A stretch of DNA of 64,000 nucleotides from NCBI GenBank assembly GCA_025558095.1, contig JAIVFI010000002.1, forward strand, positions 1,178,001 through 1,242,000, read 5' to 3'. The DNA comes from Hyaloraphidium curvatum (lineage: Eukaryota; Monoblepharomycota; Hyaloraphidiomycetes; Hyaloraphidiales; Hyaloraphidiaceae). The position numbers were made by a program, and so were the translations under genes. This document shows, one piece after another, positions 1 to 39,884 of this stretch. The notes beneath the pieces are model-generated. The model was given only the letters and a program-made list of their open reading frames with translations, had not been told where the DNA came from and ran no database searches. The first letter of the stretch is position 1. The number at the start of each line of letters is the position of its first letter.

Positions 1-18
1 TGTTTGTGTACGGCAGCC

Positions 19-1103
19 TCACATCTCGAGAAAGGCAATCCCGTTGCTGATCACCTTGACCTTGCGCTCCGGCACAGAGGTCTCGAACGCGACCACCCTC
101 CGCCCGCTCTCCGCGTCCTTTCCCAGGTCCCACATCTCGGTCCGCAGCGATTCGCCCGGGTAGACGGGGCTGGAGAACCTGCAGCGGATCACGCGCAGCC
201 TGCCGGGCACGTTGGAGCACCAGCTCGAGAGCACGGCGCGGGAGGCGAAGCCAAAGGTGCAGAGGCCGTGCAAGATGGGGTTGGGGAACTGCTTGCGGGC
301 GTACTCGGGGCTGATGTGCAGGGGGTTCGTATCGCCCGAGAGTCGATCTGGCCGCAAAACAGTCAAAGAAGGTACTGAGGAACTCGCGACGACGAGACCC
401 ACAAACGATGGCCTGATCCGGCGTCGTCCGCTCCTCCACCACCTTGTCCGCCGGCCGCTGCGGCACTCTCCACTTTTCCGCCAGTTCGTCCCGAGGCCTC
501 TTCTTGCCGCCGAACCCGCCCGCGCCGATCACGAACTGCGTCGAGATCCATCGAGCCACTGGCTTCCCGAAACCCCGCTCGGCCAGTAGGTACTCCAACT
601 CCTGGATCATCCCCTTGCCGGCGTCGTACAGGCCGATGATAGAGGTGCGCATCTCGAAGCCGTCGCCCGAGTCGGGAGGAATGCCGTCGGGCGAAAGGAG
701 CTCAAAATGCTGCTCGCCGTGGACGCCCATGCCGTCCTTGGCCCCGGGGACAACCACCCTGGTCTTTGCGGTGCGGTCGAAGAAGGGGATCACGTCGAAT
801 GAGTCGCCTTTGTGCTAGCACGAGGGTTTAGCGACGCAGAACTCCAGGGTGGAGGCAAACACGAACCCGAAGCACGCATGGATAAGTTGGGAGAACAGAG
901 AAGCCCGGCGAGAGCTCATAGGTGAATCGCAGATCCGTTTCCCCGATGCCGACTCTGGTGAGAGGTTCGGGAACGAATCAGGTTGCGGTGGGGGCAGATG
1001 ACGCTCGGCAGACCACCCACGCGTACAGAATAACATCTCTTCGGTTCCACTTCACGGGCTCAACCCGCGGAGGGATCTTGCTGATGTCCGGAACGAGCGA
1101 CAT
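19..1103 (-). CDS. Stand-alone 2-enoyl-CoA hydratase 2 (MaoC/hotdog), peroxisomal type
   Basis: Hydrates trans-2-enoyl-CoA in peroxisomal beta-oxidation. Exons (minus) 1103-1021, 954-867, 814-403 and 347-19 give about 303 aa, the size of stand-alone hydratase 2 proteins, without the dehydrogenase part of fungal Fox2/MFE-2. The hydratase 2 signature YRLSGDTNPLHI (catalytic Asp and His) is followed by PILHGLCTFGFA; the YRL codons are rebuilt across the 348-402 intron. The N-terminal half has ILYAVGIG and VLPTYP as in MFE-2. The start ATG at 1103 precedes MSLVPDISKIPP. The reading frame stops at 19, but GTGAGG at 22-17 is a good splice donor overlapping that stop, so a last exon, possibly with a PTS1, may lie beyond the left edge. 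It is divergent from the peroxisomal carrier at 1359. Family certain; 3' end uncertain. Confidence 0.88.
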
Positions 1104-1358
1104 TGGTGGGAACGCGTCGCGGGAGACAAAGCGGGGACCACGATTGAACAGTCCCCGGCTGTCCGATCCGCCGGAAAGCGCGCAGAACCAAACGTTCTGT
1201 AGAGATTCGTAATCGCACGGCACTAGTTTGGCCGCGATGCGCCAAAGTGTCCGCCCCGGGGAGACGGCCGATCCCACAGCGCTGCGCCGCTTGCCGCTGA
1301 TCGGCGCCAGAACTTTCGTTGACAAACACCGAGCCCTCCCGCGCCGCTCCTCTGCTCC

Positions 1359-2531
1359 ATGCCGCCGGCGTCTGCCGCCGGACCCCCGGCCCGGCTCTCG
1401 CCGTTCGGCGAGGCGGTCGCCGGCGCCGCTGCAGCGGCGTTTGCGAACCTCCTGGTTCGTCCCCGACACGGGTGCGCTGCCCGGACCTGCTGACCGCCCC
1501 GTCTTGCCAGGTCTATCCGCTGGACGTGGTCTCGACGCGCATGCAGGTGCAGTCGAGGCGCCGCGAGGCTCAGGGGAACCTGCCCGACGGGAAACCGGGG
1601 CTGGATCACCACGCTTCGGTCGGGTACGCCTCGACGCTGGACGGCCTGGTCAAGATCTTTGAGCAGGAGGGCGTTACCGGACTATATGCCGGGTTGCAGA
1701 CGTCTATGGCTGCCACATTGTGGGTTCTTGGCCCGGCATGTGCTTCTTTCGCGCCCGTGACCCTTGCTGCCGCCGTCAGGCTGAACAACTTCTCCTATTT
1801 CTACGCGTATTCCATAATCCGCCGGGCATACATCCGCGCGAATCCCGAACCCCCTTCTACCATCGTCGAGCTCCTCCTGGGCATGCTGGCGGGCGCCTGC
1901 GCCCGAATCTGCACGACCCCGGTCAACGTCGTCACCACACGGTATGTTGCCCTCAACTGCGACCGCATTGGCCGTTTCTCACATTCGGACAATCAGGCAA
2001 CAAGCCCGCCCCGCCCTGACGTCCCTCGATATCCTCCGCGACATCCTCGACCGCGACGGGCCGAAAGGCCTGTATGCTGGGCTTCCCGCCGCCCTGGTGC
2101 TCACCGTCAACCCCGCAATCACATACGGACTCAACGAGCGGATGAAGACGCTCGGCTGGCCCAAGGGAGCGTTCGCCAGGGGCGCCCTGGGGAAGGCCGT
2201 GGCGACGATTGTCACATACCCGTACATTCTGGCCAAGGTGAAGCTGCAGTTCGGTGGCGGGGGAAGAAAATACTCTTCTGCGATGGAGGTACTTACGTCG
2301 ACGGTGGGAGATGAGGGTTTCTTTGCACTTTACAAGGTGGGCTCGGTTCGGCGTGCTTCATTTCCACATGTACTGAAACGACCCTCTCTTCAGGGGCTGG
2401 ATGCCCAGCTGTCGAAATCTGTGCTGACCCAGGCCATCCTGCTGGTGGCAAAGGACTGGATTGAAGCCCGCGTGCTCGCCGTCGTCGTGTGGCACTGGAT
2501 GCACCGCAATGGCCCTGCCAAGGTCGTGTGA
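1359..2531 (+). CDS. Peroxisomal adenine-nucleotide/CoA carrier, PMP34/ANT1-like (mitochondrial carrier family)
   Basis: Six-helix solute carrier expected in the peroxisomal membrane, importing ATP or exchanging CoA-type cofactors for acyl activation. Exons 1359-1454, 1511-1719, 1780-1941, 1997-2336 and 2394-2531 give 314 aa. Three repeats are visible: YPLDVVSTRMQ (repeat 1), TPVNVVTTRQQ (repeat 2, Asn for the usual acidic residue) and YPYILAKVKLQ (repeat 3). The segments NNFSYFYAYSIIRR and GLDAQLSKSVLTQAIL are typical of the PMP34/ANT1 subgroup rather than mitochondrial ADP/ATP carriers. The start ATG at 1359 opens MPPASAAG, followed by an Ala-rich first helix interrupted by the first intron. 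The fourth intron (57 nt) stays open in frame. Next to other peroxisomal genes, it would supply ATP and CoA for the CoA ligases downstream. Substrate is inferred. Confidence 0.87.
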
Positions 2532-2664
2532 AAAGTCTTGATTCGAACCCTTTGACCCTCGCTGCTCTCCGTTCGATAACCTTCTGCAATGTGTACATAA
2601 CACCCAAAGATGAAGTAGATACGATCTTGACTTGAACGCCTTCCATCCTCCTCCGCTGATTTTG

Positions 2665-3940
2665 CTAGCAGCAACCGTCGCCCTTGATGACCACAACGTC
2701 CCTCTCCCCTTCCGTTCCGCAGAGCGGCAGCTTGGTCACCTCGCTGTCGCCGACGACCGCCGTGTACGCCCATCCCTCGAACCGGGCCCACCCCAGCGCC
2801 GCCTCCCCGACAGCCACCCCCAGCATGGCGGCCACGAAGACCCAGATGTTGTATGACATGACGACGAGCATCACCACGTACGCCGCCGAGATGGACGGGA
2901 GGGTGCCCGCGAAGCGCAGCAGGGCGGCATCCAGCCGGGCACGGGGGGTGCGGATGCGGTCGCGCCGGCGGGCCAAGGTCGCGAGAAGGTCGCTGGTTGA
3001 AAATCAGCAATGGCAGTGCGACCAGTGCTGGAAACCGTACCGGACGATGGTGAGGAAGACGCTGCCGACGGCGATGGCGAAGATGGCGATGAGCGATGCG
3101 ACGAACTGGCCGTTGTCTGGATGCGGATGCGGCGGGGTAAACTACAGCTTGGTCACGGGGCCATGCATGCCGTAACCCACTGTTTGCAACCCATGTGTAG
3201 GAGAGGAGGTAGTCCCGGAAGCCGGCGTGGAAATACATGAGCATGTTGGGCGGAGGAAACCCGTCGCTGTTGGCAGTGCAGAGGGTGGTCGAGGCGAGCG
3301 GGCCGGAAGACGAGCACATGGAAGCATGGATGATGCACTGGCTCATCGTCGGCATCGCATTGCAGAGGTCCGAGTAGACGGCCTGCATCGAAAAGTTGTT
3401 GAGACGGGGGCGAAAGCGATGACTGCAGCGACCCACTAGCAAATCGCAGTTGGCGTAGGTGACGCCGCCAACGTAGGAGCATTTCTCGCATCCGGTCATC
3501 GTCATTTCGGTGCAGATGCTCTTCACGGCCGCGTTCACCGCGTCCGTTGTCGGGAGGCCCGGCAGAGCGGGGTTCGCGGCGCACTGCGCCACCACCGACA
3601 CGTTGCTGCACATCGAGACGTAGTTGCGGCATCCTCCCATCATAGACATTCCCGCGTCGGAGACGCAAGTGTCCGCTACGAGGCTCATGGGCGTGCAGAA
3701 GCCACCTGCATGCAGCGCCTGTGCGTTGTCCCCGCTCGAAGCGCACATGGCGGCAGCCGAGCAGCCTGTCATGAAGGGCATCGAAGTGCAGAGGGATGTG
3801 AGGTCGGCAGTGGCATTTGCGTCGGGGTATATGAACGAAGCGCAGGTGGCCGTGGTGGGGTCGGCTACGCAGGGTGCCGCCGCGGTGGCGCGGGCCCCGA
3901 GCAGCAGGAGGCCGGCCAGGAGACTGACGAGGGCGAACAT
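2665..3940 (-). CDS. CTR-family copper transporter with Cys-rich ectodomain
   Basis: Predicted plasma-membrane high-affinity Cu(I) importer. Exons (minus) 3940-3437, 3382-3181, 3116-3041 and 2992-2665 give 369 aa. A signal peptide (MFALVSLLAGLLLLG) leads into an extracellular domain of about 200 aa with repeated Cys motifs (SLCTSMPFMTGC, GMSMMGGC, CEKCSYVG). The CTR membrane part follows: MLMYFHAGF before TM1, MLVVM (the MxxxM copper filter) in TM2 and GVAVG (GxxxG) in TM3, ending in a Cys-Cys tail (GDGCC). The intron at CDLL/AVYS is conserved in the plus-strand neighbour at 4443, supporting both models. TM1 is reconstructed as WVANNNGQ across the 3117-3180 intron. The two genes are transcribed head-to-head from a 502-bp spacer. 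Confidence 0.9.
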
Positions 3941-4442
3941 ATCTTCGGCACCGAACCGAGTAGGGGCACTTGGGATGAGAATCTGCTTTGTGGCGGCGCA
4001 GAGGGGGCGGAAGAAGGTTGTTGGCCGGTCGGCTCAGCTCGCCGGCCACAGGTCTTCCGGTTCGCTCCGAGGACTGCGGATCGGCGGCACAATGCGCACT
4101 CCGCAAGCCTGGCAGTGACCGGATCATTTTCTCGAGGTATATTTAATGCATCTGCGCTTTTCCTGCTGCGAGGTAAGGCATTCGGAGCGGCTGAAAGTTG
4201 GGACCGCTCCCTGGAGCGAAAATCGCTCATCGAGCTCCATTCGTGACCCGGGGTTCCGTCCGCAGCCGTGACGGTCGGTAATGAATGCCAGAATCGCGGA
4301 CATGATCATTCGGCGGGAACGAGGGCGGATGGAGGGGGTCAAAGAATGCCTGACTAAAGCAAGCTTCCGGTTGCGGCCGACGACCGCGAGCTGGAGCAAG
4401 CGGGGCGGTGCTCCGATTCCGAGCCCCATCCACACACGCAGA
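3941..4442. promoter_or_regulatory. Shared divergent promoter region of the CTR gene and its GPI paralogue
   Basis: The 502-bp spacer lies between two opposite start codons. A TATA-like TATATTTA sits at 4138-4145, about 200 bp from the CTR start and 300 bp from the other. No exact copper-response element (TTTGCTC type) was found by eye. No additional coding region is supported; the frame open from 4281 lacks a signal peptide until the ATG at 4443. Confidence 0.35.
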
Positions 4443-5549
4443 ATGGCGCTCACGGCCGTCCTCTTCGTCCTCACACTCGCGCTGGCCGCGATCTCAGCCG
4501 TAGCAGCTCAGCATGGCGGCATGCCTTCCATGAACAACACCGGCGGCGTCTTGCTGTCGGACCAGTGCGTCGTGACGCCCTCCACTACAGGATCCGTTCA
4601 TGGTCTCGCGTCTGCGGATCCCCTCGCTAATCTCGCTTCCGATTCTGCAAGTTGCGAGTACTACCAGCTGCCGCACCACACCTCCGTTGCCGACCTCGAC
4701 AACCTCTGCACTATGATGCCCTTCATGTCCGCGTGCTCCGTGCGCGACCTGTGCGCCGCGGGGGCGGTGCCGTACCTCAACGCGTCGGGATGGTGCAAGC
4801 CGTTTTCCCTTCTCGCTCATGTGTGCTCCGTGGACGAGGGGATGTCGAAGATGAAAGGCTGCGTGAACTACAACAGGTGGGCTCTGCCGTCTCTGCCTGC
4901 TCCAAATCTTCCTTGCAACTCACTCATTAGACTTCTTACGTGCATCCTACTGTGTAATGTCACTGCCGGCATGGTTGTCATCCAGTGCAAGGCCATCGTG
5001 CCCCTGCCCAACCTGCCTTCGACGATGCCACTCAACGCCGTGGTGAAGAGCATCTGCGAAGAAATGCCTTACATAAGCGGATGCGAAAAGGTGAACATCG
5101 ACTGCACATGGCCTTTTGAAGGTTGTTAACGGTTCACTAGTGCTCGTACGCCGGGAATGTCACCTTCGCCAACTGCGACCTGCTCGTAAGTCCCATCCAC
5201 TGCTCACGCTCGCCATAGCCACCAGCTCGGTGCATGCATCCCTTTTCAGAGCGTCTACAGCCAACTCTGCCGCTCGATGCCCACGCACACGCAGTGCTTC
5301 ATGATGAACACAATCTGCGCCGGCCCCACAGGTAATACCACCTTAGGCCAAGGGTGGAGCTACACGGCGTACCAAGGACAGACCTCGCCGCTTTCGATCG
5401 TTACTTCGACCAACGGGGTGGTTCCCAGCCCTACTCGGAGCATGACCACGGTCACGTCGACGAGCAGGCCGAGCGGTGGCAGGAGAGTGCACGCGGGGAA
5501 GCTGTGGCTCGCGGTAGCTGTCTTTGCCCTTCCTGTGTTCTTGAAGTAA
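4443..5549 (+). CDS. Predicted GPI-anchored Cys-rich protein sharing the CTR ectodomain
   Basis: Probable cell-surface protein, paralogous to the N-terminal half of the CTR transporter next door but lacking the three CTR helices. Exons 4443-4876, 4931-5090, 5141-5185 and 5250-5549 give 312 aa. A signal peptide (MALTAVLFVLTLALAAISA) is followed by the same Cys pattern (NLCTMMPFMSAC, GMSKMKGC, CEKCSYAGNVTFANCDLL, SVYSQLC). The end changes to a Ser/Thr-rich stretch with a C-terminal hydrophobic tail (LWLAVAVFALPVFLK), as in GPI-anchor signals. The ATG at 4443 is chosen because it opens the signal peptide. Intron 4877-4930 is a multiple of three and stop-free, so a retained form would still be open. 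A surface copper-handling role beside the CTR protein is inference from shared domain and arrangement. Confidence 0.82.
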
Positions 5550-5699
5550 GAGCTGGCCGAGTTGTTGCGTCGCAGATGACGCGATCTGCCACGTGTGGCA
5601 AAGTTCCAATCTCGCCATTCTCCCCCGACTTCCGCGTCTCCCGCACCCGCAGCCTCGTCACGAGACCAGCAAGGGACCTACCGTAGCACTCTGCGTGCC

Positions 5700-6917
5700 A
5701 TGTCAGCCGCAGCGCTTGACTCCGTTGCGCGCGGCGACGCTCCTTTCGCCTTTGAGCCGTTCGGTCTGCCCGCCAGCAACCAGCGGGCTCTCGGCGCGCC
5801 GCACTCCCCGGGCACCGTGTTGCCGCTTGCGCTGCGCCCTGCCGGCACGGACGGCGCCGATCTCGGTGCCGCGATCGCGGAAGTGCGCCGCCTGCAGGCC
5901 ACCGGAGAGCTCACCACCGCGCTCGCCAAGAACGGCGCGCTGCTCTTCCGCGGCCTGCCTATTCGTACTGCGAAAGATTTCTCCGAGTTTGCCCACGCCT
6001 TCGGCTTTGCCCCGCATGAAATCATCGGCATCGTCGTCGAGCGGCCCGAGCTCGCGCCCAACGTCGCCCCCGCCAACGAGTCTTCCAAGGAAGTGCTTAT
6101 ATATAACCACAACGAATCGCCCCAGGTGCCGCATGCGCCCGAGTACGTCATGTTTAACGCGCACCACATCGCTGCCGGCCTGGAAGGCGGCGAAACTCCC
6201 ATCAGCTCTAGCCTGGAGCTGTTCGAATTGGCCAGGCGCGAGATCCCCGAGTTCGTCGCCGAGCTGGCCGAGAAGGGCATACTCTCCCGCATTACGTACA
6301 CTGCGGAACCGCAGTACAAGGGCGGCTCCACGCTGCGGCAGGCGTTCGGCAAACACGTGCTGGAATCGGACCCGCCCCAAGTGCGAAGGGCAAAGATGGA
6401 GGTGCAGCTCGCTCGGTACGCGAGGGGCAAGCACACGACCTGGGAGTGGCAGGACGGTGGAGACACGCTTATCGTGACGCACCGCCTTCCCGCCATCCGC
6501 ACTCAGCCCGGGACCGGACTGGGGACGCTCTTCACCGGGCTGGCTGCGTACTGGAAGAATGCGCAGCAGCAGGCGCAGCAGGGTGCCGCCAGCGCGACGC
6601 AGGCGGCCCGAAAGAAGGTGACCGTCCAGACGTTCGGCGACGGCACCCCCATCCCCGATCGGTACCTCGCCAAGTTGGCCGAGATCACCGATCGGATCCG
6701 CATCCTCCACAAGTGGCAGGTCGGGGACGTACTCGTGTTCGACAACGTGATCGCGCAGCACGGACGTGAGCCGTGGAAGGGCGAGCAGAGCGATCGCGTG
6801 GTTCTGGCGAGCCTGTGGGACGGCCAAGTGCCTGGCGCGTACACCGACGCGGACTGGGCTCGGGTGGTGCAGGCGCTGGAGGATGTGGGATTTGAGGGCA
6901 AGCCCGCAAAGCTGTGA
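5700..6917 (+). CDS. TauD/TfdA-family Fe(II)/2-oxoglutarate dioxygenase with PTS1 (AKL)
   Basis: Intronless 405-aa dioxygenase. The His-x-acid iron motif is in YNHNES, the distal His in VIAQHGREPW, and the 2-oxoglutarate-binding Arg likely in RVVLASLWDG. The open frame extends upstream to a GTG at 5595, but the first ATG is 5700 (MSAAALDSV), used here. The protein ends PAKL: AKL is an accepted PTS1, pointing to the peroxisome matrix. TauD/TfdA relatives cleave taurine, phenoxyacetate or similar carboxylates by hydroxylation; the substrate here is unknown. It is followed 220 bp downstream by an acyl-CoA synthetase also ending AKL, so an oxidised product fed to CoA ligation is a reasonable hypothesis. 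Confidence 0.88.
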   Translation: MSAAALDSVARGDAPFAFEPFGLPASNQRALGAPHSPGTVLPLALRPAGTDGADLGAAIAEVRRLQATGELTTALAKNGALLFRGLPIRTAKDFSEFAHAFGFAPHEIIGIVVERPELAPNVAPANESSKEVLIYNHNESPQVPHAPEYVMFNAHHIAAGLEGGETPISSSLELFELARREIPEFVAELAEKGILSRITYTAEPQYKGGSTLRQAFGKHVLESDPPQVRRAKMEVQLARYARGKHTTWEWQDGGDTLIVTHRLPAIRTQPGTGLGTLFTGLAAYWKNAQQQAQQGAASATQAARKKVTVQTFGDGTPIPDRYLAKLAEITDRIRILHKWQVGDVLVFDNVIAQHGREPWKGEQSDRVVLASLWDGQVPGAYTDADWARVVQALEDVGFEGKPAKL

Positions 6918-7136
6918 AGTTGGAAGTGCAGTTGTATTGGCATCGTCTTGTGACCAAAGTTGTTGAACGTCGAAGAGGGGCGGGCGGCTACGAACGCCTC
7001 GGTCGGGTGGTGTCGGCTCCGGAGCGTCGCGCCATCGGTCAACATTCCGCACCCAGAGGTCCGACTCAAGACCCTCGGTCCGGACCATATCCCGCTCTGC
7101 TGCTCAGCGGACAGCGCTTTCGCTCCCGGCGCTGCG

Positions 7137-9315
7137 ATGGTCCTCTACCGCTCGCCGTACCCGGACCTGACCATTCCGAAGTCGGTTGCCGTTCCTTGCC
7201 TCCGTCGGCCTCGCACCGACGCATCTCTTTTTCCATAGGGTCAGCGTTTACGATCTTCTCTTCTCGTCGCCGAAGCCGGCTTCCTCGTCGCCGCTCACGG
7301 ACGTCACCGCTTCGGAGTCGGGACCTGTCGACAGTGCTTCGTGGGAGACGCGGGACCTCTTTATTGACGCCGGCAACGGCACGGCGTACACGTGGCGGGA
7401 CGCCAAGAAGAGGATAGAGGAGCTCGCGCGCGCGCTGCGGAACGTCGGGAGGGACTCGAGGATCCCCTGGTCGCTGCGGGAAGACGAGGTCGTGGGCACT
7501 TTTAGCCCCAACCAGTGAGGCCGTCGCTGTTGGCGCTCATTGCGGTCTTCTCATCCTCAACTTCCTCCAGCATTGACTTCCCGATCGTCGTCTGGGGCAC
7601 TCTGCGGGCCGGCATGGTCATGACGGCCGCGAACCCGGCGTATACTGTCGGCGAACTGGAACACCAGCTGTCCGACTCCAAGACCCGCATCCTGGTCACT
7701 TCCCCCGCCAACCTGCCGTTGGCCGCCGAGACCGCCGCACGGGTCGGCATCCCCGTCGCCAACATCGTGCTCATGGACTCGCGCACCGAGGACGAGCGCA
7801 AGAAGGGCGGGGTGGACCGGCACTACGCGGATTTCCAGGGCACGCGGCTGTGGACGGTCGAAGGGCTCGTTCACGTCGGGCGATCGCTGGCCCCGCTGCC
7901 CGCGATCACGTACGGGAACGAGATTGTCAACAAAACCTGCTACCTCATGTACTCCTCCGGGACTACCGGACGCAGCAAGGTGGGCTGCGCCACGCAGCGA
8001 CAAAGCTGTAGGCTCACGGCTGTTTTCTTTTCTTCCAAGGGGGTTGAGCAGACCAACGGCAACATCGTGGCCAACTGCCTTCAGATTCAGGCTTCGGTGG
8101 GTTCGGTTGCATTTCTCCGCTTCCAACCAGACTCATTTGTCGCACGAAACAGGAGAAGTATTTCATTCCCGTCGGCAAGCGGATGCTGGCCGTTCTCCCT
8201 ATGTACCATTGCTATTCCTTGACGTGGTGTGTCCACTTTTCCGTGTTCCAAGGCGCACCATTGGTCGTCATGCCTGGGTATGTCGTTGATCGGGTTGCGC
8301 TTTCTGGTTTTCCTCACCCGTGGAACCACCAGGTTCAACCTCGCCGCGCTCCTTCATACCCTCTCGCACTACCAGATCCACTTTGCCCACCTCGTCCCCC
8401 CGATCATGGTGCAGCTCGCCAAGATGCCCCTGGAGGAGCTCCGCAAGTACGACCTCACCCACCTCCGCTGGATCGCCTCTGGCGCCGCGCCCATGGGCGC
8501 CGAGACCGGCGACGAGGTCATGCGGAGACTGCCGCGGGCGAGGATCAAACAGGGATACGGGATGACGGAGCTGGCCCCCGTGTCGATCGTGGAGCGGTAC
8601 GGGCCGCCAGAAGACGACGGGACCGGGTGCATCGGGGTGCTGCTCCCGAACCAGGTCGCGAGGCTGGTGGATTTGGAGGGCAAGGACGTGGGGCCCGGCG
8701 AGGAGGGGGAGCTGCTCATCAAGGGACCGGTAGGTTGACTTGAAGCTTCGCGGCAGGGAGATCGGCTCATCTCGAGGTGCCAGAACGTGATGAAGGGCTA
8801 CCTCAATCGCCCAGATGCTACTGCCGAGACTTTCGACGGCGACTTCCTCAAGACCGGCGATCTGGCGGTCGTCGACGAGCAGGGGCGGTTCTTCATCCGG
8901 GACCGGCTCAAGGAGCTCATCAAGGTCAAGGGCTTCCAGGTCCCGCCCGCGGAGCTCGAGGCGCTCCTCCTTACCCACCCCGTCGTCGCGGACTGCGCCG
9001 TGATCAGCATCCCGGACGTGGACGGGACGGCGGGCGAGCTGCCCAAGGCCTTCGTGGTGCTGAGAGAGAACGTCGCGGACCAGGGGAAGATGGCGGCCGA
9101 GATCCAAGCATTCGTCGCGGGAAAGGTGGCGCACTACAAGCGGCTCACCGGCGGCGTGGACTTTGTCGACGTTATCCCGAAGAGCGCGAGGTAAGTTGGC
9201 GCCTCCGGATCTGTTGGTCGTCCTGATCGCCTCTCGTTCCAGCGGCAAAATCTTGAGGAGGATCTTGAAGGACAATGACGCTGCCAAGCGGCAAAGCAGC
9301 AAGGCGAAGCTGTAG
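7137..9315 (+). CDS. Peroxisomal 4-coumarate:CoA ligase-like acyl-CoA synthetase (AKL PTS1)
   Basis: ATP-dependent ligase activating a carboxylic acid to its CoA thioester through an acyl-adenylate. Eight exons: 7137-7180, 7239-7514, 7571-7979, 8040-8096, 8153-8277, 8333-8729, 8784-9190, 9243-9315, coding 595 aa. The N-terminus VLYRSPYPDLTIPKVSVYD is characteristic of 4CL-like enzymes. Motifs include YSSGTTGRSKG (P-loop), QGYGMTE, NVMKGYLN, the hinge region TGDLAVVDEQGRF and the catalytic Lys in SASGKILRR. The protein ends SKAKL (PTS1). Several splice joins restore conserved residues exactly (IPK/VSVYD, MPG/FNLA, GP/NVMKG), so the model is strong. Unlike the LACS downstream it belongs to the 4CL/short-to-medium acyl group; phenylpropanoid, jasmonate-precursor-like or fatty substrates are all possible. 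Confidence 0.92.
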
Positions 9316-9452
9316 ATGAGGGGTGTACGTTCTCAATTAATTGCCGAATTGGACAAGCAATTGTCGAGCACGTTCGCATCTTGAACGGAGCGATGGTTGG
9401 CGCGGCGCGGCAGATTGTTTCGCCGCCACCGACTCCCACGACAATCTGACCG

Positions 9453-10743
9453 ATGGCCAGCGCCTCCGCGCCGTCAAGAGCACCCAGCGGCGCAACGCCG
9501 GACGGCTCCAGTAGGAATGTCTTCCCAGACTTGCCACTATCCGTGCTTGTCAAGGATTTCCTGGTTACGCCCGACGATGCCCGCGTTTTCCCGGCGACCG
9601 GCATGACGGCCCCCGACGACCGGATCCGGCTTTCCGTCCGTATGTTCGCGGACTCGGACGTCGAGGACGGCCTGGACATCCTGCTCATGCACGCGACGGG
9701 GGTGCCCAAGGTGCGGTTCCTGCCTGCAGCACATGACGTGCCGGAGCTGACTCCCGTGCCTCAAACGACACTAGGCCTGTTACTACCCTCTTGTGCCGAT
9801 GCTGTTCCACGGTCTGCCGAACGTCCGCTCGGTGATCACCTACGACGCCCGGAACCACACCGATTCCGCGCTGCTCAACTCCCCCGCGCTCCTCGCCAAG
9901 GAGAAGGACGGGTTCTGGGCGTGGGGCGTGGACGCTCCCGCGGACTGCTGGGGCGTCGTCCGCGCCTTTGGTCTGGACAAGAAGGGGCACGGGGTGGTCG
10001 GCGTCGGGCACTCTTTCGGCGCGGCGGTGCTGGCATTGACGGAAATCCAGCACCCGGGGACGTTCGAGCACCTCGTGCTAGTGGAGCCGGTGCTGTTTCC
10101 CGCGACGATGGCGAGGAGCGGGCCGCCAAAGGTCGTGGGCAGCGAGCCGCCCCCGAAGCCCAAGGAGGAGGCGGGGCGTCCGCCGGACCGGATCGCGCTG
10201 GCTGCGCGGCGGCGCGCCGTCTTTCCCACCCTCCAGTTCGCCATGGAGTCCTTTGGTTCCAAAGCTTTCTTCAAGACCTGGGACAAGACCATGTTCGGGC
10301 TGTACATGGAGCACGCGTTTTCGAACCTGCCTTCGGGGGAGGTGAAGCTCAAGACGTCGCCGCAGCAGGAGGCCATGAGCTTCGCGGGCGGGCACACGAT
10401 GATGTGGTGCTGGCCGAGGCTGAAGGAGATACGCGCGCGGACGCTGGTCGTTTCGGGACGGACGTCGGACCACCTGCTGATGAAGGTCGAGGGGAAGGAC
10501 GGCGTCATCATGTGAGCTTCCAATGGTCGAAGGGTGGATTACTTTGCTGACGTGCTCGTTCACGGCAGGTCCAAGGATCTGGCGGTGGTTTCGCTGATTC
10601 CCGGCTGCCAACATGTGTTCCTGGATTGCGGACATATGGTCGTTCAGGAGAGGCCGCACGAGGTCGGCGAGGTGATCTGCAGGTTCCTCGGCGGTGCCGA
10701 GTACGGACAGCCAAAGCTGGACGCCGCGGCCGCCAGGCTCTGA
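9453..10743 (+). CDS. Alpha/beta-hydrolase, Lpx1-like lipase or esterase with ARL ending
   Basis: Exons 9453-9710, 9775-10511 and 10569-10743 give 389 aa. The nucleophile elbow is GVGHSFGAA, an acidic residue is available in the C-terminal half, and the likely catalytic His is in DCGHMVV near the end. The YYPLVPMLFHGLPNV to SVITYDARNHTDSAL region resembles the fungal hydrolase group that includes the yeast peroxisomal lipase Lpx1. The C-terminus AAAARL ends in ARL, a PTS1 variant. Introns are placed where VPK/ACYYPLV and VIM/SKDLAVV rejoin. Genes on both sides encode PTS1-ended acyl-CoA synthetases, so it may release acids from esters for activation. The acyl substrate is unknown. Confidence 0.85.
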
Positions 10744-11034
10744 ACACGGACAGCCAATCTGGACGCGGCGATGGCCTGCCCTCACTACTTTCAGCTGATA
10801 GAGTAGATGGATGACTAGATCGACCTTAGAATCGTCGCGCCAACAGTGATCGACCCGAAGTCCGAGCTCCGGTGCCTTCGAACTCTACGATTCGTGTTCG
10901 CAGCAAGCTCCCGGTTTTAGCCGTTTCTCTTGTCGAGTGCCAGGGCCTTGGAGGAGACACGCTTTCACATGTTTTCCAGCCGCGACGCACCGCCATCAGA
11001 CCCCTTCCTCCACTCCCCGTTCTAGCTCGCAACG

Positions 11035-13814
11035 ATGAGCCTGCCCGCCGGGTTCCCCGCCGCCGCGCCGCCGCTGCCCGGGTCGGGCGACCTGCTCGCG
11101 TCGCTGCCGGTGGCCGAGCGCCGCAAGGCGCTGGAGAACCAGTCCAACTTCTCGCCCACGCGGCGCGACGGCGAGTCGCACATCCTCCGCCACCGCTCGG
11201 TGCCGTTCGACGTGCCGCTGCCGGAGCGGCCCGACCCGCTGACCGTGAGCCGCGCGCGCGCACGAGCTCGCCCGCCCTGACACGCCCGCAGCGCAACGTG
11301 TTCGACATCTTCGGCAACGGCCTCAGGTGCGTGTCGTCGCAGCGATAGCGGGCGCTCGGGGCCCCGTTTCCGCGCATGCGGCGTCTTGGAACGGGTTACC
11401 ACCGTCGCTTGGCCAGGAGCGGGTCGTGGAGGCCCGTTTCCGGGTGTGGGACCCCGCGGCGGAGTGTCTCCGCGAATGACTCCGCACCGGAGTGGCAGCC
11501 CGATCGGCCTTCGGTATGCCGCTATCGGCACCTGGCCCGATTGAAAGACGGCGCTGGCCGCGGGATTCGGCGTGCCGGTCGCTGATTCCGCGTTCCCGTC
11601 CTCCAGGAAGGTCCCGGACTTCCCGTGCCTGGGATGGCGGAAGCAGGAGGGCGGCCCGTACATGTGGAAGACCTACAAGGAGGTCAGTACCCGTGCTCGA
11701 TTGTTTCAAGGTACCTTTGCTGACCGGCCGGATAGGTCTACGAGGACGTCGAGGTCGTCGGCTCGGCCCTGATCAACGCCTGCGGCATGAAGCCCGGCGA
11801 GGAGGCCTTTGTCGGCCTCTATGCCAACAACTGCCCCGAGTGGACCATTGTCGACATTGCGTGCGCGGCGTACAGCCTGATCACGGCGACCATGTGGGCA
11901 GCGCCGGTCAAGGTGCCTGTGATCCCGTCTGACTCCGTCTGCCGCCGCCAGGTACCCGACCTTTGACGACGAGGCCATCGGCTACATCGTCAACCTCTGC
12001 GACATCTCCACCGTCTTTGTCCAGCGCGTCAACGTCGCCCGGCTGTTCGGCCTCGGGTCCAAGCTGCCTTCGATGAAGCACGTGATCGTCATGGACGACG
12101 AGCTCTCGGGCGCGGACCGCGACAAGGCCGGCCAGCTCGGCTGGAACATCATGAGCTGGAAGGAGTTCACGGCCAAGGGGCAGCAGGCGCGCGTGCCCGT
12201 GTGCCCGCCTTCGAACCCCAAGGCGATGTACTCGCTCTGCTTCACGGTGGGTCATTGCTGTGGGCACTTTGCTTTCAACATGTCTGACTTCGCCTGCTGG
12301 TGACAGTCCGGCACCACCGGCACGCCCAAGGGCGCGATCCTGACCCACGTCGGGATGACGGCGATGGTAGGTTGACTTCGTTCGGTCAGCTTGGCCGGCC
12401 CAACATGCCGCTCCTTCCAGATCACCGTCCTCCGCACCGTGTTCCCCAGCACTTTCTACACCCCCGGCGAGGACATCCACATCTCCTACCTCCCCCTGGC
12501 CCACATCTTCGAGCGCACCGCCATCCTGGCCATGTTCTACGGCGGCGTCGCCGTGGGCTACTTCCGCGGCGACAACCTCAAGCTGCTCGAGGACATCCAG
12601 GAGCTCAAGCCCACCTTCTTCAACGCCGTGCCCCGCGTCATCGGCCGCATCGTCGACACGGTACAGAACACGGTGGACGCGAGCGCGGTGGTCAAGTTCC
12701 TCTTCAACCGCGCCTACAACTCGAAGCTCTCCACGCTCGAGAACCAGGGCCTCGTGACCAAGGACACCCTGTTCGACCGCCTGCTCTTCAAGAAGATCCA
12801 GGCCGTCACGGGCGGCCGCGTCAAGTCCATGATCTCGGGCGCCGCGCCCATCTCGGCCAAGTCGCTCGAGTTCCTCCGCGTCGTCTTCGGGACCAACGTC
12901 TGCGAGGGCTACGGACAGACCGAGTCGCACGCGGCCATCACCATCACCTCGTTCGGCGACGTCTGGCTGCCATACGGGAACCACATCGGCCCCCCGGTGC
13001 CGTGTGTCGAGGTCAAGCTCGTGGACGTGCCGGAGATGAAGTACCTGGCGACGGACAAGCCGCACCCGCGCGGCGAGATCTGCTTCCGCGGGCCCAACGC
13101 CATGCTCGGTCGGTCCAAGTGGCACCCTTCGCCTGCTTCCATTCTGATCCCATCTTCTGACAGGCTACTACAAGGAGCCCGCCAAGACGGCCGAGACCAT
13201 TGATTCCGAGGGCTGGGTCCACACCGGCGACGTCGGCATGATCCTGCCCAACGGCTGCGTCAAGATCGTCGACCGCGTCAAGCACATCGTGCGTCGCGAC
13301 GTTGCCTCGATCCTTCGGCGCCTCTCACGCGTTTCCGTTTCCAGTTCAAGCTCCAGCAGGGCGAGTACGTCGCCCCCGAAAAGGTCGAGACCGTCTACGT
13401 GCGGTCCAAGTACGTCGCCCAGGCCTTCGTCTACGGCGACTCGCTCCAGCGCTTCCTCGTCGGCGTCATCGTCCCCGACGCGGAGCAGCTGCTCATCTGG
13501 GCCAAGGCCAACGGGCTGGGTGGCAAGACGCTGGAGCAGCTGTGCAAGGACAAGAAGGTGGAGGAGATGATCCTGAAGGACCTCCAGGCCGTCGCCAAGG
13601 CCAACCAGATCCCCGGGTTCGAGCAGTGCAAGGTCGGTCCGCGCCCTCGCGGCCCGTTTGGTCGCCTTTCTGACCCCCCGCGCAGTACATCCACCTCTCG
13701 CCCGACATGTTCACGGTCGAGAACGGCCTGCTCACCCCGACCATGAAGTCCAAGCGCAACGAGCTCAAGAAGTACTTCCAGAAGCAGCTAGACGAGATGT
13801 ATGCCCGCCTCTGA
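11035..13814 (+). CDS. Peroxisomal long-chain acyl-CoA synthetase (LACS; ARL PTS1)
   Basis: Activates long-chain fatty acids to acyl-CoA for beta-oxidation. Ten exons: 11035-11244, 11292-11326, 11607-11682, 11736-11893, 11952-12246, 12307-12366, 12421-13108, 13164-13288, 13345-13632, 13686-13814, coding 687 aa, matching the roughly 690 aa of peroxisomal LACS. Motifs: SGTTGTPKGAILTH, YLPLAHIFER, CEGYGQTES, GWVHTGDVG, IVDRVKHIFK and GEYVAPEKVE. It ends MYARL, a PTS1. The second intron (11327-11606, 280 nt) is about five times the local norm; all others are 47-60 nt. Exon 2 is only 35 nt. It faces the TauD-type gene at 13915 with about 100 bp between stop codons. Confidence 0.92.
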
Positions 13815-13914
13815 GCCGGCTATGTGCTCCTATGTGCAATGATTGACAGCTGATTAATTGAAAAAGCGTCACATTGAAGAAGTTGCCGTCGGGCACATCG
13901 ACCGTCCCGCCGAT

Positions 13915-15165
13915 CTACAAGCGGGCTTTCGGCGCGTTGTCACCCTCGTAGATGCGGAACTGCATCCCATGCCTCTCTGCCATGTTCTTCTCCCACTCGC
14001 GGATCGCCGGCGTGATCTTCTGCCCCCTGAATCCTCCCCTCAATGCCGGCGTCTCGACGTCCTTGTACGCGGGTTTCCAGGCGTCGGGCAACATCGGCGC
14101 GTCCGGGCAGGCCAGCCAGAGCCTCAGGAGGTGCCGCTTCCTCTCGAACTCGGCGTGGTCCTCGTACCCGGTCCGCGAGTGCAGCACGATGTGGTTGTTC
14201 ATGAACATCATGTCGCCGGGGAGCATGTGGCTGCGGTAGCACATGTCCTCACGGGCAAGGATGGCGTCGAAGTAGTCCAGAGCCTCGAGCTGCTTGGGCG
14301 TGAGCCGGGGGACGTCGGGGAAGGAAATCTGCGCCGTGCGGATGTGGTTGCGGATGTGGCGGCACGCCCAGCTGCCGTCGGGACTGCGGCCCATGATCGG
14401 AGCGAGGTAGTGCGGAGGTTCCTGAGAAAGGACAAGGAGGGTCGGTCACGGCTCGGAGCGACCGATTTCCCGCGCTCGACATACCTCTGGCGCCTCCTCT
14501 CCCTGGCGACCGAACGTCATTGGCTGATAGAGCTCCTGGAGCAGGTCCGGCCGCTCCGCCAGCATCACGTTATGGGCCCGGATCGAGGACGAAGCGATGC
14601 TCTCGCCACCGCTGATCGCCACCTTCAAGCAGAACAGTCCTGCCACGTCGGAGCCGTCCGAGTGGAAATCGAGCGCGGACCGCGAAGTGTAGCCGCGGCC
14701 AGAACTGCCCCTGTAGTCGACACCCACATCCCTGACGTTCGTCAGGAACAGAGATTCCTTCCCCTGCGGTCGGGCGACGCCAAGGTAGAGGCCAATTCCC
14801 CAGAAGATGAGCTCGAGATCCTCGGTGGAGTGCTCCGCAACGGGAAACCCGCGGAGGTTGATGATCCCGTTGCCCTCTTGGAGCTCGTCCCGAATGGCCT
14901 CCAGCACGGGGAGGAACGCGTCCAGCGGGAAGTCTTCCGGCAGCACCGAGAACAGATTGACCGGTGAGGGGTGTTTGCTCTTCAGGTGGGCCAGCGCCGC
15001 ACGGAGGTCGGCGATTTCCTCGGGGTACACCTGGCGGTAGAGCTTCCCCGGTTCCGCCGCCTGGCGCTCCAGGTCCGCCCGTGTCCAGCCTCCATTAGGC
15101 CAGGAGATTTCGCGGATCGGGACCTCGACGTTAAACCTGGAGGGTTCCGGCCAGAGGGGAGGCAT
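13915..15165 (-). CDS. Second TauD/TfdA-type Fe(II)/2OG dioxygenase, ARL PTS1
   Basis: Exons (minus) 15165-14485 and 14421-13915 give 395 aa. Iron ligands are visible as DFHSDGSD (HxD) and the distal His in NNHIVLHSRTGYED; the Arg for 2-oxoglutarate is likely in RHLLRLWLA. The start at 15165 opens MPPLWPEPSRF. The C-terminus NAPKARL ends in ARL, again a PTS1. It is only distantly related to the dioxygenase at 5700: it has the longer TauD form with an N-terminal segment of about 100 aa. It is convergent with the LACS gene. Substrate unknown. Two PTS1-tagged TauD enzymes in one locus is uncommon to my knowledge. Confidence 0.87.
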
Positions 15166-15610
15166 CGTCCGTCCGTCGGTTGCGCCACTGGGTGGCAAGA
15201 CTCGACGATGGCTTCTGGGAACGGAAATCAGGTTAGTGTGTGTTTGGGTTGCCGGAGCGCCGCCGCCGCCGAGAGACCAGCAACCGGGTCTGCCGACGCG
15301 ACGACGGTACGTGGGAGTTTGCGGACCTCCTATCGGGCGCGTTGCCCGGGGCCTGCGCCTGCTTAATGGCGCGGCCTCGTTCGCCTTAGGGTGCGCTGTT
15401 CCAGCGTACGCGGACGAGCAGCGACTGCACAAGACTCACTCCATCACCGCAAGAGCACTTCCCACTCTGAAGGCGCCAAGGAGCTTGTCGTCTCATTGTT
15501 CTTCTCATTCGACACAGATTTACAAGGTATTGTACTCTCCTCTGGGGATAGCTGGTTTCGTCGCTCTCCACCGTGCACCGAGACGCCTCGATCAAGTTCG
15601 CATGCGAGCG
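15166..15610. other. Intergenic, no gene seen
   Basis: Upstream of the minus-strand dioxygenase and downstream of the minus-strand protease. Only GC-driven open frames without family features; no repeat recognised. Confidence 0.5.
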
Positions 15611-17121
15611 CTAGAGCGTCTTTGTCCCCGCCCGCGGCACGGTGCCCCTCCTCCGGAGCAGCGCCTCGGGCAGGCAGTCGTACTTCACCCTCGCGAGTTT
15701 CCAAATGTTCGCCGCGCACCCCGAAGACCCGAAGGCCCGGTCGCCGACCATCCCTTCGCACGAGGTGTAACCATCGCACGGCTTGAACTTTGCTGTCCGA
15801 AGGCCTCCGCATGTCCGCGAGCTGATGAAGGGCGATCCGGGCGCCTTGCATCCGCCGGAGAAGCCGGCTGTGCGGCCGACGACGTCGCGGCCATAGAAGC
15901 CCGAAGTGATGCTGAGGTACGTGCCCGGATATGATCGGCACGATGGCCGGATCATGGCGCCCTGGCAAGCGCCCGCGACGAGGCCGTAGCGGGCGGTGGG
16001 GGCCGGAGTCCGCTTGACCGTGGTGGTCCTGCGGCGGGTGGTGGTCCTCCGCGGCGCCGGGATCGTGGTAGTTGAGGCGGGAGGGTCGATCCGGGCATCG
16101 ATCGGGGTCCAGATGAAGCCCATGGTGTCGCCCTCCCCCGACATGATGCCGCCGGCGCCGTAGGCGATCTTGAAGTGGCCGCCGTTGCCCCACCAGGTTC
16201 CCCAGCTGTTCTTGCAGCTGAGGACGCCCTTGCTCGTCGCGGTCAACCCGCCGTTGGGCGCGTCGTCGTCGAAGCCATAGCACATAACCGCGTGGCCGCC
16301 GAGCACCTTGGCGCCCTTCCTGGGCCCGGGATAGACATAACTGGAGTTGAAGGAGGCCGAGACGTTTCCGAACCCCGGGAAATCGTCGTAGACAGTATAG
16401 CCCGTCAGGACGGCACCGTGGTTAAAGATGTGTGTCCGTACTGCCTCCCAGCTGTTCAGGGTGACGCTTTGCAGCGATCCAGTTCCGTTCCGAATCAGGT
16501 TCGACGCTGCAGGGCACTTCAAGACTCCACAACCCGGGCCTTCTGCTTCGGGAAGGCACTGTTCGGCAAAGACTCCCTGCTGGGCCGCCACATTCGCAGC
16601 CTCGTCGACGAACCAGCCCGAGTCACACTTGTTCTGCCCGAGGCAGTAGTAGAGGTGCCGCTCGGCAAGGTCCGGCTCCCCGGCAAAGTCTGGCGGGATG
16701 TGGGTTCGGCCGCGGTACGAGACCGTGGCCTCGAGGGCAGCGATGGCAGCGTAGGCCACGCATGAGCCGCAGGAGCCCTGGCTCTTCACGGAAGTGACTG
16801 CGTCGGGGAAGAATCAGTCGTTGGGGAGAGGGCTCGAAGACATGGGATCCTACCGTAGTTGTTGCCGTTGAGGGCCGAAAGGTCCCATCGCCGAATCCCG
16901 TTTATCCTCCCAGCGGAGCGATGGTCCTCGAACTCGGCGGCGAGCAGCGCTGCCCGGGCAGCCCGCTTGGAGCCGTCGGGGTCGCCGCGCGGGAAGTTGT
17001 TTTTCCCCAGGTTGGGCGGGGTCCACTGCGAAGGCTCGTCGGCCGCCGCGCCGCGGGCCAGGAAGGCCGCAAAGCCCAGAATGGTATAAAGTGAGAGTTG
17101 TTTCATTTCTCGCGGTTTCAT
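15611..17121 (-). CDS. Secreted papain-like (C1) cysteine protease with Cys-rich C-terminal domain
   Basis: Exons (minus) 17121-16854 and 16797-15611 give 484 aa. A signal peptide (MKQLSLYTILGFAAFLARG) and a short propeptide of about 70 aa precede the catalytic domain. The splice join rebuilds NYVTSVKSQGSCGSCVAYA, containing the oxyanion Gln and catalytic Cys. The His lies in GGHAVMCYG and the Asn in CKNSWGTWWG, so the triad is intact. After the catalytic domain a Thr/Arg-rich linker (TTTRRRTTTVKRTPAPT) leads to about 110 aa with eight or so Cys and no recognised family, perhaps a binding module. A second in-frame Met five residues in could be the start. Extracellular or vacuolar proteolysis is expected. 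Confidence 0.88.
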
Positions 17122-37676: not shown

Positions 37677-38591
37677 TTACATCCTTGCGCTCTGGATGCT
37701 GCGGTCCGTCCCACTCCCGGACCCGAACCCGCCGATCCCGATCCGCGACCCCCGCAGGCGCCCGCCGACCACCATCTCCCTCAGCTCGGCATCCTCGACC
37801 TCGTTCCGATCCGCCTCCCGCCTTGCCCGCGCCGCATCCCTCGCCTTCCACCCCCTCGGCGCCCTGCCCATCTTCACCCTCCAGAACTCCTCCGACTGCG
37901 CGCGGTAGTGGTTCAGCCGCACCCCCTCGGGGCAGCCCGCCGGAACGCCGCGGCGGAGGAGGTGCCGGTGCACGCCGAACCGCGCCAGATGGGGGAGGCG
38001 GGCGGCGGATTTGTCCCCCGCGTGCTCGCGCGCGGCGCGGCGGACGAAGGATTCGCGCACCGAGGCGGGCTGCGAGGGAAGGCCGGAGGAGCCGAACATC
38101 CGCCACTTGCACGACACCTGCCCGACGGAGGGGTCGGCGAACGCGCGGCGCAGTTCGGAGGCGAGGGGGAGGGGGGTGGAGGAGTACATGAACTCGTCGA
38201 GGTCCACGACGAGGACGAGGTCGGCGCCGCGGGAGGCCAGCAGGGGGCGGGCCGAATCGTAGTGCCGCGGCTGCATGCCGCGGCCTTCTGCCGGCAAAAC
38301 GACGAGGTCCGCGCTGCGGTTCATTTTCGCCGCCGCCATTCGGGCCGTTTCCGGGGTGCCGTCCGTCGAGCCGTTGTCGAGCAGCACGACGAGGTCGGCC
38401 CCCTCGGCAAAATAGTGGGCGAGCCACTCGGCGACGATGTGCGACTCGTTCAGCGCGACGGCGAGCACGGCGAGGCTGCCCGGCGCGGGCACGTCGGAAA
38501 AGTCGTCGGGCGGGCGGCGGCCGGCCGTGAGCGAGAACAGGAGCGCGGCGGCGGCGAGGGACGCGAGCAGCGCGCGCCACCGCCGGCGCAT
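37677..38591 (-). CDS. Type II membrane glycosyltransferase, GT92/DUF23-like
   Basis: Single exon, 304 aa. A short basic tail and signal-anchor (MRRRWRALLASLAAAALLFS) place the enzyme in the Golgi or ER lumen. The GT-A-like core has VALNESHIVAEWLAHYFAEG, LLDNGSTDGT and VVDLDEFM (DxD-type metal motif), the order seen in GT92/DUF23 proteins. The C-terminal third is basic. It is divergent from the next glycosyltransferase-like gene with 147 bp between start codons, suggesting co-expression. Sugar donor and acceptor unknown. Confidence 0.8.
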   Translation of the reverse strand: MRRRWRALLASLAAAALLFSLTAGRRPPDDFSDVPAPGSLAVLAVALNESHIVAEWLAHYFAEGADLVVLLDNGSTDGTPETARMAAAKMNRSADLVVLPAEGRGMQPRHYDSARPLLASRGADLVLVVDLDEFMYSSTPLPLASELRRAFADPSVGQVSCKWRMFGSSGLPSQPASVRESFVRRAAREHAGDKSAARLPHLARFGVHRHLLRRGVPAGCPEGVRLNHYRAQSEEFWRVKMGRAPRGWKARDAARARREADRNEVEDAELREMVVGGRLRGSRIGIGGFGSGSGTDRSIQSARM

Positions 38592-38738: not shown

Positions 38739-39884
38739 ATGCGCCTCCGCCGCAATGTCCTGCCCGTTGCAATTTCTCTGCTCGCCGCGGCGGCCGCGCT
38801 GACGTGGCTCTCGCGCCCGCCCCACGCGCCGCCCGCGCCGCTGCGCTTCGCCGCCCTCAGCGCGGACCGGCCGTCGCGGCCGCCCCTCCGGCCCGATCCG
38901 GCGTGCCCGCGCGTGCTCGTGCTTTCCTCGGCACCGGCAGGACTCGGCCACCGCGTTACGGCGCTGGCCATCGGCGCGGCGATGGCGGGATCGGCAAACG
39001 CCGCACTGGCCGTGCCGCGGGACTACTGGTCGAAAGTCAGCCGCGAGCACCGTCGCGGGTTTGCCGGGGCCGGGGAGGTGCTCGGGCTGGACGCGTTCGC
39101 GGCCCCGGAGGACATGAACGTTGCCCGCCTGCGGACCGTTGCAAATGGGCTGCCATGCCAAGCAGTGCTGGACGAGATCGAAAGACACTGCAACGTCTCC
39201 GCCATCCTACCGGCAGGCAACATCGGCGGCTGCCTCTCCGCAACCGGCAGGCGGACATCGTGCTTCGCCGTCTCCCCCGGCGCCCTGCGCGCAGCCAAAC
39301 CCCTCCTCTCTGCACTCTTTGCCCGCGCCCGGCCCTCCGAACCCCGGACATGCCGCACCGCGCGCGCGCTGACGGTCGCCTGGCACGTCCGCAACGGCGA
39401 CCAGCGCATCGCCCTGCCGCCCGCCTTCTTCCTCTCCCTCCAACGCGCCATCCTCTCCGCCGCGCGGCCGCTCGGCCTGGCCGCCGCGCACCTCGTGTTC
39501 TCCGCCCGCCCCCTTTCTACCGACCCCTCGCTATCCTACATCCCCCCGCTCTTTCCCAACGGCACCGGCTACCAGAAGGGGGGCGACCCCGTCACCAGCC
39601 TCGCCTCCCTCGCGCGCGCGGACGTGCTCGTGGGGACCGGCTCATCCTTCGCCGCCGCCGCCGCGATGCTGGCACCCGCGGGGAGCGTGTGGATCCACGC
39701 GGCACCGAAGGAGGCGAGGATCGCGGGTGCGGGGGGGTGGGAGGGGACCTACGCGCTGGATGGGATCGAAGTGGACGATGGGGGGGGGTTGGGCGGAGCG
39801 GGGCAGGGAAGGTTGGCGGATGCGCTGGCTGGGCTGTGCGGTGCTGGGAGACAGGAGGCCGGTTCGGGCACGCAAGGGCGGTAG
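38739..39884 (+). CDS. Type II membrane glycosyltransferase-like protein (fucosyltransferase-type motif)
   Basis: Single exon, 381 aa from the ATG at 38739 (MRLRRNVLPVAISLLAAAAA), a signal-anchor. The lumenal domain has VAWHVRNGD, an Arg-containing donor-site motif like those in GT-B fucosyltransferase-like families, and VLVGTGSSFAAAAA near the end. An Asn-linked glycan site (NVSA) and several Cys fit a secretory-pathway enzyme. The upstream open frame to 38637 is not needed. Last residues (GAGRQEAGSGTQGR) look non-conserved, so the true 3' end could involve splicing into the damaged gene downstream. Exact family uncertain. Confidence 0.65.
   Translation: MRLRRNVLPVAISLLAAAAALTWLSRPPHAPPAPLRFAALSADRPSRPPLRPDPACPRVLVLSSAPAGLGHRVTALAIGAAMAGSANAALAVPRDYWSKVSREHRRGFAGAGEVLGLDAFAAPEDMNVARLRTVANGLPCQAVLDEIERHCNVSAILPAGNIGGCLSATGRRTSCFAVSPGALRAAKPLLSALFARARPSEPRTCRTARALTVAWHVRNGDQRIALPPAFFLSLQRAILSAARPLGLAAAHLVFSARPLSTDPSLSYIPPLFPNGTGYQKGGDPVTSLASLARADVLVGTGSSFAAAAAMLAPAGSVWIHAAPKEARIAGAGGWEGTYALDGIEVDDGGGLGGAGQGRLADALAGLCGAGRQEAGSGTQGR

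What the first reader, a model, noticed from the sequence alone, without database searches (positions are those of the whole stretch)
1..15165. Peroxisomal gene cluster: seven of nine neighbouring genes, five with PTS1 tripeptides
Seen: five proteins encoded in a row from 5700 to 15165 end in AKL, AKL, ARL, ARL, ARL (TauD dioxygenase, 4CL-like ligase, alpha/beta hydrolase, LACS, TauD dioxygenase). The two genes before the CTR pair are a hydratase 2 and a PMP34/ANT1-like carrier, both peroxisomal families. Known: PTS1 is [SAC]-[KRH]-[LM]. Inference: a co-located catabolic module in which esters are hydrolysed, acids oxidised by 2OG dioxygenases and activated to CoA thioesters, with ATP/CoA brought in by the carrier. 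Clusters defined by organelle rather than by one metabolite are rarely described.
Basis: partly seen in the sequence, partly recalled or inferred. Interest (0 to 1): 0.87.

Follow-up and report, generated by a model that had tools for sequence, protein, structure and literature searches.

The report
Fungal peroxisome-enzyme gene cluster
In an unnamed GC-rich fungus, five neighbouring genes for enzymes that handle organic and fatty acids all end in the short address tag that sends proteins to the peroxisome, which is far more than chance and points to a small metabolic module, although fungal clusters with several peroxisomal enzymes are already known.

Summary
Five consecutive genes at 5700-15165 (TauD-1, 4CL-like ligase, alpha/beta hydrolase, LACS, TauD-2) end in AKL, AKL, ARL, ARL, ARL. 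Homology fixes each reading frame close to the stop. A home-made gene finder found such endings in 1 of 85 sampled genes and 2 of 29 other genes of the window. Five in a row by chance is expected about 2e-4 times per genome (0.04 at the upper bound). "Seven of nine" is too generous: the PMP34-like carrier fits, but the hydratase-2 ends FLEM and has no signal. PTS1 endings are common in some of these families here (other AMP ligases 12/18, other TauDs 4/21), so family habit explains part of the run. The hydrolase's nearest solved relatives are two peroxisomal enzymes, MpaH' and Lpx1. TauD-2 is 56% identical to a betaproteobacterial protein whose relatives lack the tag. Best reading: a peroxisomal acid and acyl-CoA module, probably catabolic, substrate unknown. 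Clusters with several PTS1 enzymes are known (AK-toxin, siderophores), so this is a new variant. Two PTS1-bearing TauD-type dioxygenases, one of bacterial type, are the unusual part. Localisation, expression and synteny are untested.

The parts
5700..6917 (+). TauD-1: TauD/TfdA-type 2-oxoglutarate dioxygenase, 405 aa, one exon, ends KPAKL
   Evidence: PF02668 E 5.5e-32; nearest solved relatives At3g21360 (1y0z) and 9yut; HNE and distal H and R motifs present in sequence; no close paralog among the eight read
7137..9315 (+). 4CL/luciferase-type acyl-CoA ligase, 8 exons, about 595 aa, ends SKAKL
   Evidence: PF00501 E 1.7e-77 and PF13193; best solved relatives 4-coumarate-CoA ligases; catalytic Lys in SGKILRR
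9453..10743 (+). alpha/beta hydrolase of MpaH'/Lpx1 type, 3 exons, 389 aa, ends AAARL
   Evidence: PF12697; MpaH' 2.3e-6 and Lpx1 1.7e-4 as best solved relatives; GHSFG, VEPV, CGHMVVQE motifs
11035..13814 (+). long-chain acyl-CoA synthetase, 10 exons, 687 aa, ends MYARL, GC3 0.97
   Evidence: PF00501 E 8.3e-80; GC3
13915..15165 (-). TauD-2: TauD-type dioxygenase related to bacterial 7n7v/FrbJ, 2 exons, 395 aa, ends PKARL
1359..2531 (+). PMP34/ANT1-like carrier, 314 aa, no PTS1; associated, not contiguous with the five
   Evidence: PF00153 E 1.1e-48, three repeats; full-length alignment to a human PMP34 sequence recalled from memory
19..1103 (-). hydratase-2 (MFE-2 type MaoC), about 295 aa, ends FLEM; peroxisomal location not supported by a signal
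   Evidence: PF01575, PF22622; MFE-2 relatives
2665..3940 (-). Ctr copper transporter; not part of the module
   Evidence: PF04145 E 7.5e-18 on the spliced model
4443..5549 (+). cysteine-rich, probably secreted or anchored protein resembling the Ctr ectodomain; model uncertain; not part of the module
   Evidence: no Pfam hit for the first exon; gene-finder model ends early at 5129

Best explanation
A peroxisomal metabolic gene cluster. Five adjacent genes encode matrix enzymes that would be imported through the PTS1 route: two ATP/CoA-dependent acid ligases, an MpaH'/Lpx1-type hydrolase and two Fe(II)/2-oxoglutarate dioxygenases. Likely working: the ligases turn carboxylic acids into CoA thioesters, the dioxygenases hydroxylate the acid or a side chain (a step that could remove a group blocking beta-oxidation), the hydrolase cleaves an ester or releases the acid from CoA, and beta-oxidation enzymes encoded elsewhere finish the breakdown; the nearby PMP34-like carrier could supply ATP/CoA. 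Shown here: gene order, C-terminal signals, family assignments, catalytic motifs, presence of Pex14 and acyl-CoA oxidase genes, and the extra C-terminal tag on the bacterial-type TauD-2. Inferred: localisation, shared pathway, order of steps, catabolic direction, substrate.
For: Run of five PTS1 endings against 1/85 and 2/29 in other genes; even given family rates from other members in the genome (ligases 12/18, TauD 4/21, hydrolases 1/3) all five would carry it in roughly 0.5% of draws. Hydrolase nearest to two peroxisomal enzymes. TauD-2 keeps bacterial homology up to the last 9 residues, and the bacterial relatives lack the tag; its paralog L006 ends SKM. TauD-2 relatives in bacteria lie near TctC receptors (20/78 loci) and, in single cases, PEP mutase/ICL-type lyase, CoA transferase, HpcH/HpaI aldolase, AMP ligase and an alpha/beta hydrolase. 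Pex14 and ACOX present. By hit coordinates, no other TauD, ligase and hydrolase genes lie next to each other.
Against: No expression, localisation or synteny data. No shared promoter 6-mer stands out. LACS has GC3 0.97 against 0.82-0.87 for the others, as a housekeeping gene would, so it may be a bystander. PTS1 is common in these families in this genome, so a shared compartment does not prove a shared pathway. TctC receptors are abundant in such bacteria, so that link is weak.
Confidence: 0.55

Rival explanations
1. Coincidental neighbourhood: four or five independently peroxisomal genes (a housekeeping LACS plus accessory enzymes) lie together without forming one pathway.
For: PTS1 is usual for AMP ligases here (12/18 others); LACS codon usage differs from the rest; spacing is ordinary; no common promoter element.
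Against: Five in a row is far above background and above the family-based expectation; the chemistry (acid activation, oxidation, thioester hydrolysis) fits together.
Confidence: 0.25
2. A biosynthetic or tailoring cluster, as in mycophenolic acid or AK-toxin biosynthesis: peroxisomal activation, beta-oxidative trimming, release by an MpaH'-like hydrolase and hydroxylation of a specialised metabolite.
For: Ligase plus MpaH'/AKT2-like hydrolase with PTS1 is the pattern of those pathways (PMC9134587, PMC12591190); TauD-2 is related to FrbJ of phosphonate antibiotic synthesis.
Against: No synthase gene (PKS, NRPS, terpene) was recognised among the genes annotated here (five-gene region and near flanks); the upstream 20 kb and the rest of the window were not scanned systematically. 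The nearest bacterial TauD-2 neighbours look catabolic.
Confidence: 0.17
3. The PTS1-like endings are chance tripeptides or are not used.
For: Each ending alone is cheap in a genome rich in A, R and L codons; two ARM endings in the window sit on unrelated proteins.
Against: Sampled rate 1.2-2.6%; expected runs of five per genome about 4e-6 to 2e-4.
Confidence: 0.03

Closest known systems
AK-toxin cluster genes AKT1-AKT2-AKT3 of Alternaria alternata (described in PMC9134587)
   Same: One cluster encoding a carboxyl-activating enzyme, an alpha/beta hydrolase and an enoyl-CoA hydratase; all three PTS1-targeted and shown peroxisomal by GFP
   Different: Has a PKS, P450 and regulator and makes a toxin; no TauD-type dioxygenases named; the Alternaria hydratase carries a signal whereas the one here does not
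Mycophenolic acid pathway, MpaH' plus peroxisomal acyl-CoA ligases (PMC12591190, PMC9134587)
   Same: Peroxisomal acyl-CoA ligase and an MpaH'-type hydrolase act on one metabolite
   Different: Ligases and beta-oxidation enzymes were found by genome mining; a PKS starts the pathway; no TauD enzymes
Siderophore genes sidI, sidH, sidF (PMC3709128)
   Same: CoA ligase, hydratase and transferase, all peroxisomal, tend to lie in gene clusters
   Different: Different enzymes; biosynthetic and iron-related
Lpx1, yeast peroxisomal lipase (2y6u)
   Same: Hydrolase 9453-10743 aligns over the nucleophile region, including the EPV motif
   Different: E 1.7e-4 only; substrate unknown
Bacterial TauD enzymes 7n7v and FrbJ
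   Same: TauD-2 is 33-34% identical to them; iron ligands aligned
   Different: TauD-2 has an intron and a PTS1 tail; the function of the nearest bacterial proteins (51-56%) was not found

Membership tests
PTS1 peroxisomal matrix proteins | C-terminal [SAC][KRH][LM] on the true reading frame | tested here: met
   Five genes; not met by the hydratase (FLEM) or the carrier (KVV)
PTS1 peroxisomal matrix proteins | Organism has the PTS1 import machinery | tested here: met
   Two Pex14_N matches, best E 1.2e-20; Pex5 not searched
PTS1 peroxisomal matrix proteins | Signal-dependent localisation in the cell | not testable with these tools
   Needs imaging
Metabolic gene cluster | Adjacent genes with complementary functions | tested here: met
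   Pfam and PDB matches
Metabolic gene cluster | Co-regulation or conserved synteny | tested here: inconclusive
   No shared promoter 6-mer in a small test; no related genome was available
Biosynthetic gene cluster (AK-toxin/MPA type) | Core synthase gene in the cluster | tested here: not met
   None among the genes of 1-17106 as annotated here; wider flanks not scanned systematically
TauD/TfdA dioxygenases | HxD/E...H iron ligands and distal Arg | tested here: met
   TauD-2 H168, D170, H308, R327 invariant in alignment A1; TauD-1 HNE and distal H and R read directly from sequence, with PF02668
MpaH'/Lpx1 hydrolases | Ser nucleophile, acid and His in place; acyl-CoA or lipid activity | tested here: inconclusive
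   GHSFG, Glu in VEPV (as Lpx1; Asp in MpaH') and GHMVV present; weak E-values; activity untested
PMP34/ANT1 peroxisomal carriers | Three carrier repeats with PMP34-like sequence over the full length | tested here: met
   PF00153 with three stretches; full-length alignment to a recalled human PMP34 sequence, not a database copy

The most novel reading that the evidence does not exclude
A dedicated peroxisomal catabolic pathway in a fungus, assembled in part from a bacterial-type dioxygenase that gained a PTS1 after transfer, in which TauD-type 2-oxoglutarate dioxygenases work inside the peroxisome on an organic acid: a chemistry for which I found no report in fungal peroxisomes.
Probability: 0.2. 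Interest if true: 0.7.

Novelty: new variant of a known kind. Interest (0 to 1): 0.47.

Why it matters
It would show that organelle-confined gene clusters are not limited to secondary metabolism of ascomycetes, and it offers a clear case to test how a bacterial-type enzyme is fitted to an organelle by a few extra C-terminal residues. It also gives a cheap genome-mining rule: runs of adjacent PTS1 genes mark candidate peroxisomal pathways.

Tried and rejected
Structure prediction of TauD-1 from a single sequence gave mean pLDDT 36 and was not used. A fatty-acid promoter motif (CCTCGG) occurs twice before the ligase only. Organism identity: a 5.8S search found nothing, an 18S search failed, and papers did not help; chitin synthase genes (best single-exon match 609 bits) point to a fungus. 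Synteny in relatives could not be tested because no related eukaryote was available. Neighbours of TauD-2 in 78 bacterial loci do not repeat the cluster: 12 carry an AMP ligase within the flanks and none a clear relative of the hydrolase.

Full report
What was checked. The window is G000:C2:1178001-1242000 of a 31.9-Mb assembly in 55 contigs; the window is 66.7% G+C and sampled pieces are 56-69%. The genome has strong chitin synthase matches, two Pex14_N matches and several acyl-CoA oxidase matches, so it is most likely a fungus with working peroxisomes. The species was not identified.

Gene models. I wrote a small gene finder (codon usage plus GT-AG introns, typically 47-66 nt) and corrected the cluster genes by hand from homology. 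The region 1-15165 holds nine genes: hydratase-2 (19-1103, minus), PMP34-like carrier (1359-2531), Ctr copper transporter (2665-3940, minus; PF04145), a cysteine-rich protein (4443 to about 5549; no Pfam hit for its first exon, model uncertain), TauD-1 (5700-6917), 4CL-like ligase (7137-9315), alpha/beta hydrolase (9453-10743), LACS (11035-13814) and TauD-2 (15165-13915, minus). The last five end KPAKL, SKAKL, AAARL, MYARL and PKARL. Conserved motifs near each stop fix the reading frame, so misplaced introns are unlikely to have created the endings.

Is it more than chance? Among predicted genes outside the cluster, 1 of 85 in sixteen 10-kb pieces (fourteen spread over the genome, two just upstream of the window) and 2 of 29 in the rest of the window end in [SAC][KRH][LM]. 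With about 16,000 genes, a run of five is expected about 4e-6 to 2e-4 times per genome, or 0.04 at the upper 95% bound (scaled). A stricter null uses the families themselves. Outside the cluster, 12 of 18 AMP-ligase genes with a readable end carry a strict PTS1, as do 4 of 21 TauD genes and 1 of 3 hydrolase relatives. Multiplying these gives about 0.005 for all five. The numbers are small, but the run is not explained by family habit alone.

The hydratase ends FLEM and shows no PTS1 or PTS2; it is of MFE-2 type but its location is open. The carrier aligns over its full length with a human PMP34 sequence that I wrote from memory and carries three PF00153 repeats; it has no PTS1, as expected for a membrane protein. 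These two are separated from the five by the Ctr gene and its neighbour. The supported core is therefore 5700-15165.

What the proteins are. The ligase is closest to 4-coumarate-CoA ligases and luciferases. LACS is a full-length acyl-CoA synthetase with GC3 0.97 against 0.82-0.87 for its neighbours, which suggests a highly expressed core gene. The hydrolase's best solved relatives are MpaH' (2.3e-6) and Lpx1 (1.7e-4), both peroxisomal, and its nucleophile, acid and histidine motifs are present. TauD-1 is nearest to the plant protein At3g21360 and to 9yut. TauD-2 is nearest to bacterial 7n7v and FrbJ.

TauD-2 and bacteria. A scan of bacterial genomes found relatives 51-56% identical in Betaproteobacteria. 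They align with TauD-2 to the HGMQFxIYxD stretch and then end without any PTS1. The fungal gene has an intron and this GC-rich genome's codon usage, so contamination is unlikely. A TauD paralog elsewhere in the genome (L006, 39% identical) ends SKM. The simplest reading is a bacterial-type enzyme retargeted to the peroxisome, but without other eukaryotic sequences I cannot show the direction or time of a transfer. Bacterial neighbours include TctC receptors (20 of 78 loci) and, in single loci or a few, GntR regulators, PEP mutase/ICL-type lyase, CoA transferase, HpcH/HpaI aldolase, AMP ligase and an alpha/beta hydrolase. This suggests organic-acid catabolism, although TctC genes are abundant in such bacteria.

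How it most likely works. PTS1 import brings the five enzymes into the peroxisome. The ligases form CoA thioesters, the dioxygenases hydroxylate an acid or side chain using 2-oxoglutarate and oxygen, and the hydrolase cleaves an ester or a thioester. Beta-oxidation enzymes encoded elsewhere complete the pathway. Gene content, endings and motifs are shown; localisation, order and substrate are inferred.

Known precedents. In Alternaria, AKT1, AKT2 and AKT3, a carboxyl-activating enzyme, an alpha/beta hydrolase and an enoyl-CoA hydratase of one toxin cluster, are PTS1 proteins shown to be peroxisomal (PMC9134587). Siderophore enzymes SidI, SidH and SidF carry peroxisomal signals and tend to be clustered (PMC3709128). 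Mycophenolic acid uses peroxisomal ligases and MpaH' (PMC12591190). Clusters with several peroxisomal enzymes are thus a known kind. A paper search for peroxisomal TauD-type dioxygenases found no case, within an open-access library only and judged from titles, abstracts and one paper read. The five-gene composition is a new variant.

Verdict.

Noticed in passing
window 27165-29747 (-), 38739-40689 (+), 40970-43588 (+); L003 3074-3750 (-): Four predicted proteins end in a similar motif (ATARKTLTVVR, VVRRTLMFHQ, SARRTLTVVR, VIVRRTLMIHQ); at least two carry EGF_3 repeats. Possibly a shared C-terminal sorting or anchoring motif.
   Followed up: no
window 37677-38591 (-) and 48983-49666 (+): Two further genes of the window end in ARM, a weak PTS1 form: a GT2-type glycosyltransferase and a GFA-like protein.
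   Followed up: partly
G000:C14:62587-67433 and G000:C11:731254-735717: Two other pairs of TauD genes lie within about 4 kb of each other; in each pair one member ends AKL.
   Followed up: partly
G000:C10:39506-40651 and C51:7684-8829; C44:240515-248664 and C47:67846-75995: Near-identical matches on two contigs each suggest haplotigs or recent duplications in the assembly.
   Followed up: no
window 15611-17106 (-): Papain-family cysteine protease (PF00112) with a cysteine-rich tail, a family I regard as uncommon in fungi.
   Followed up: no
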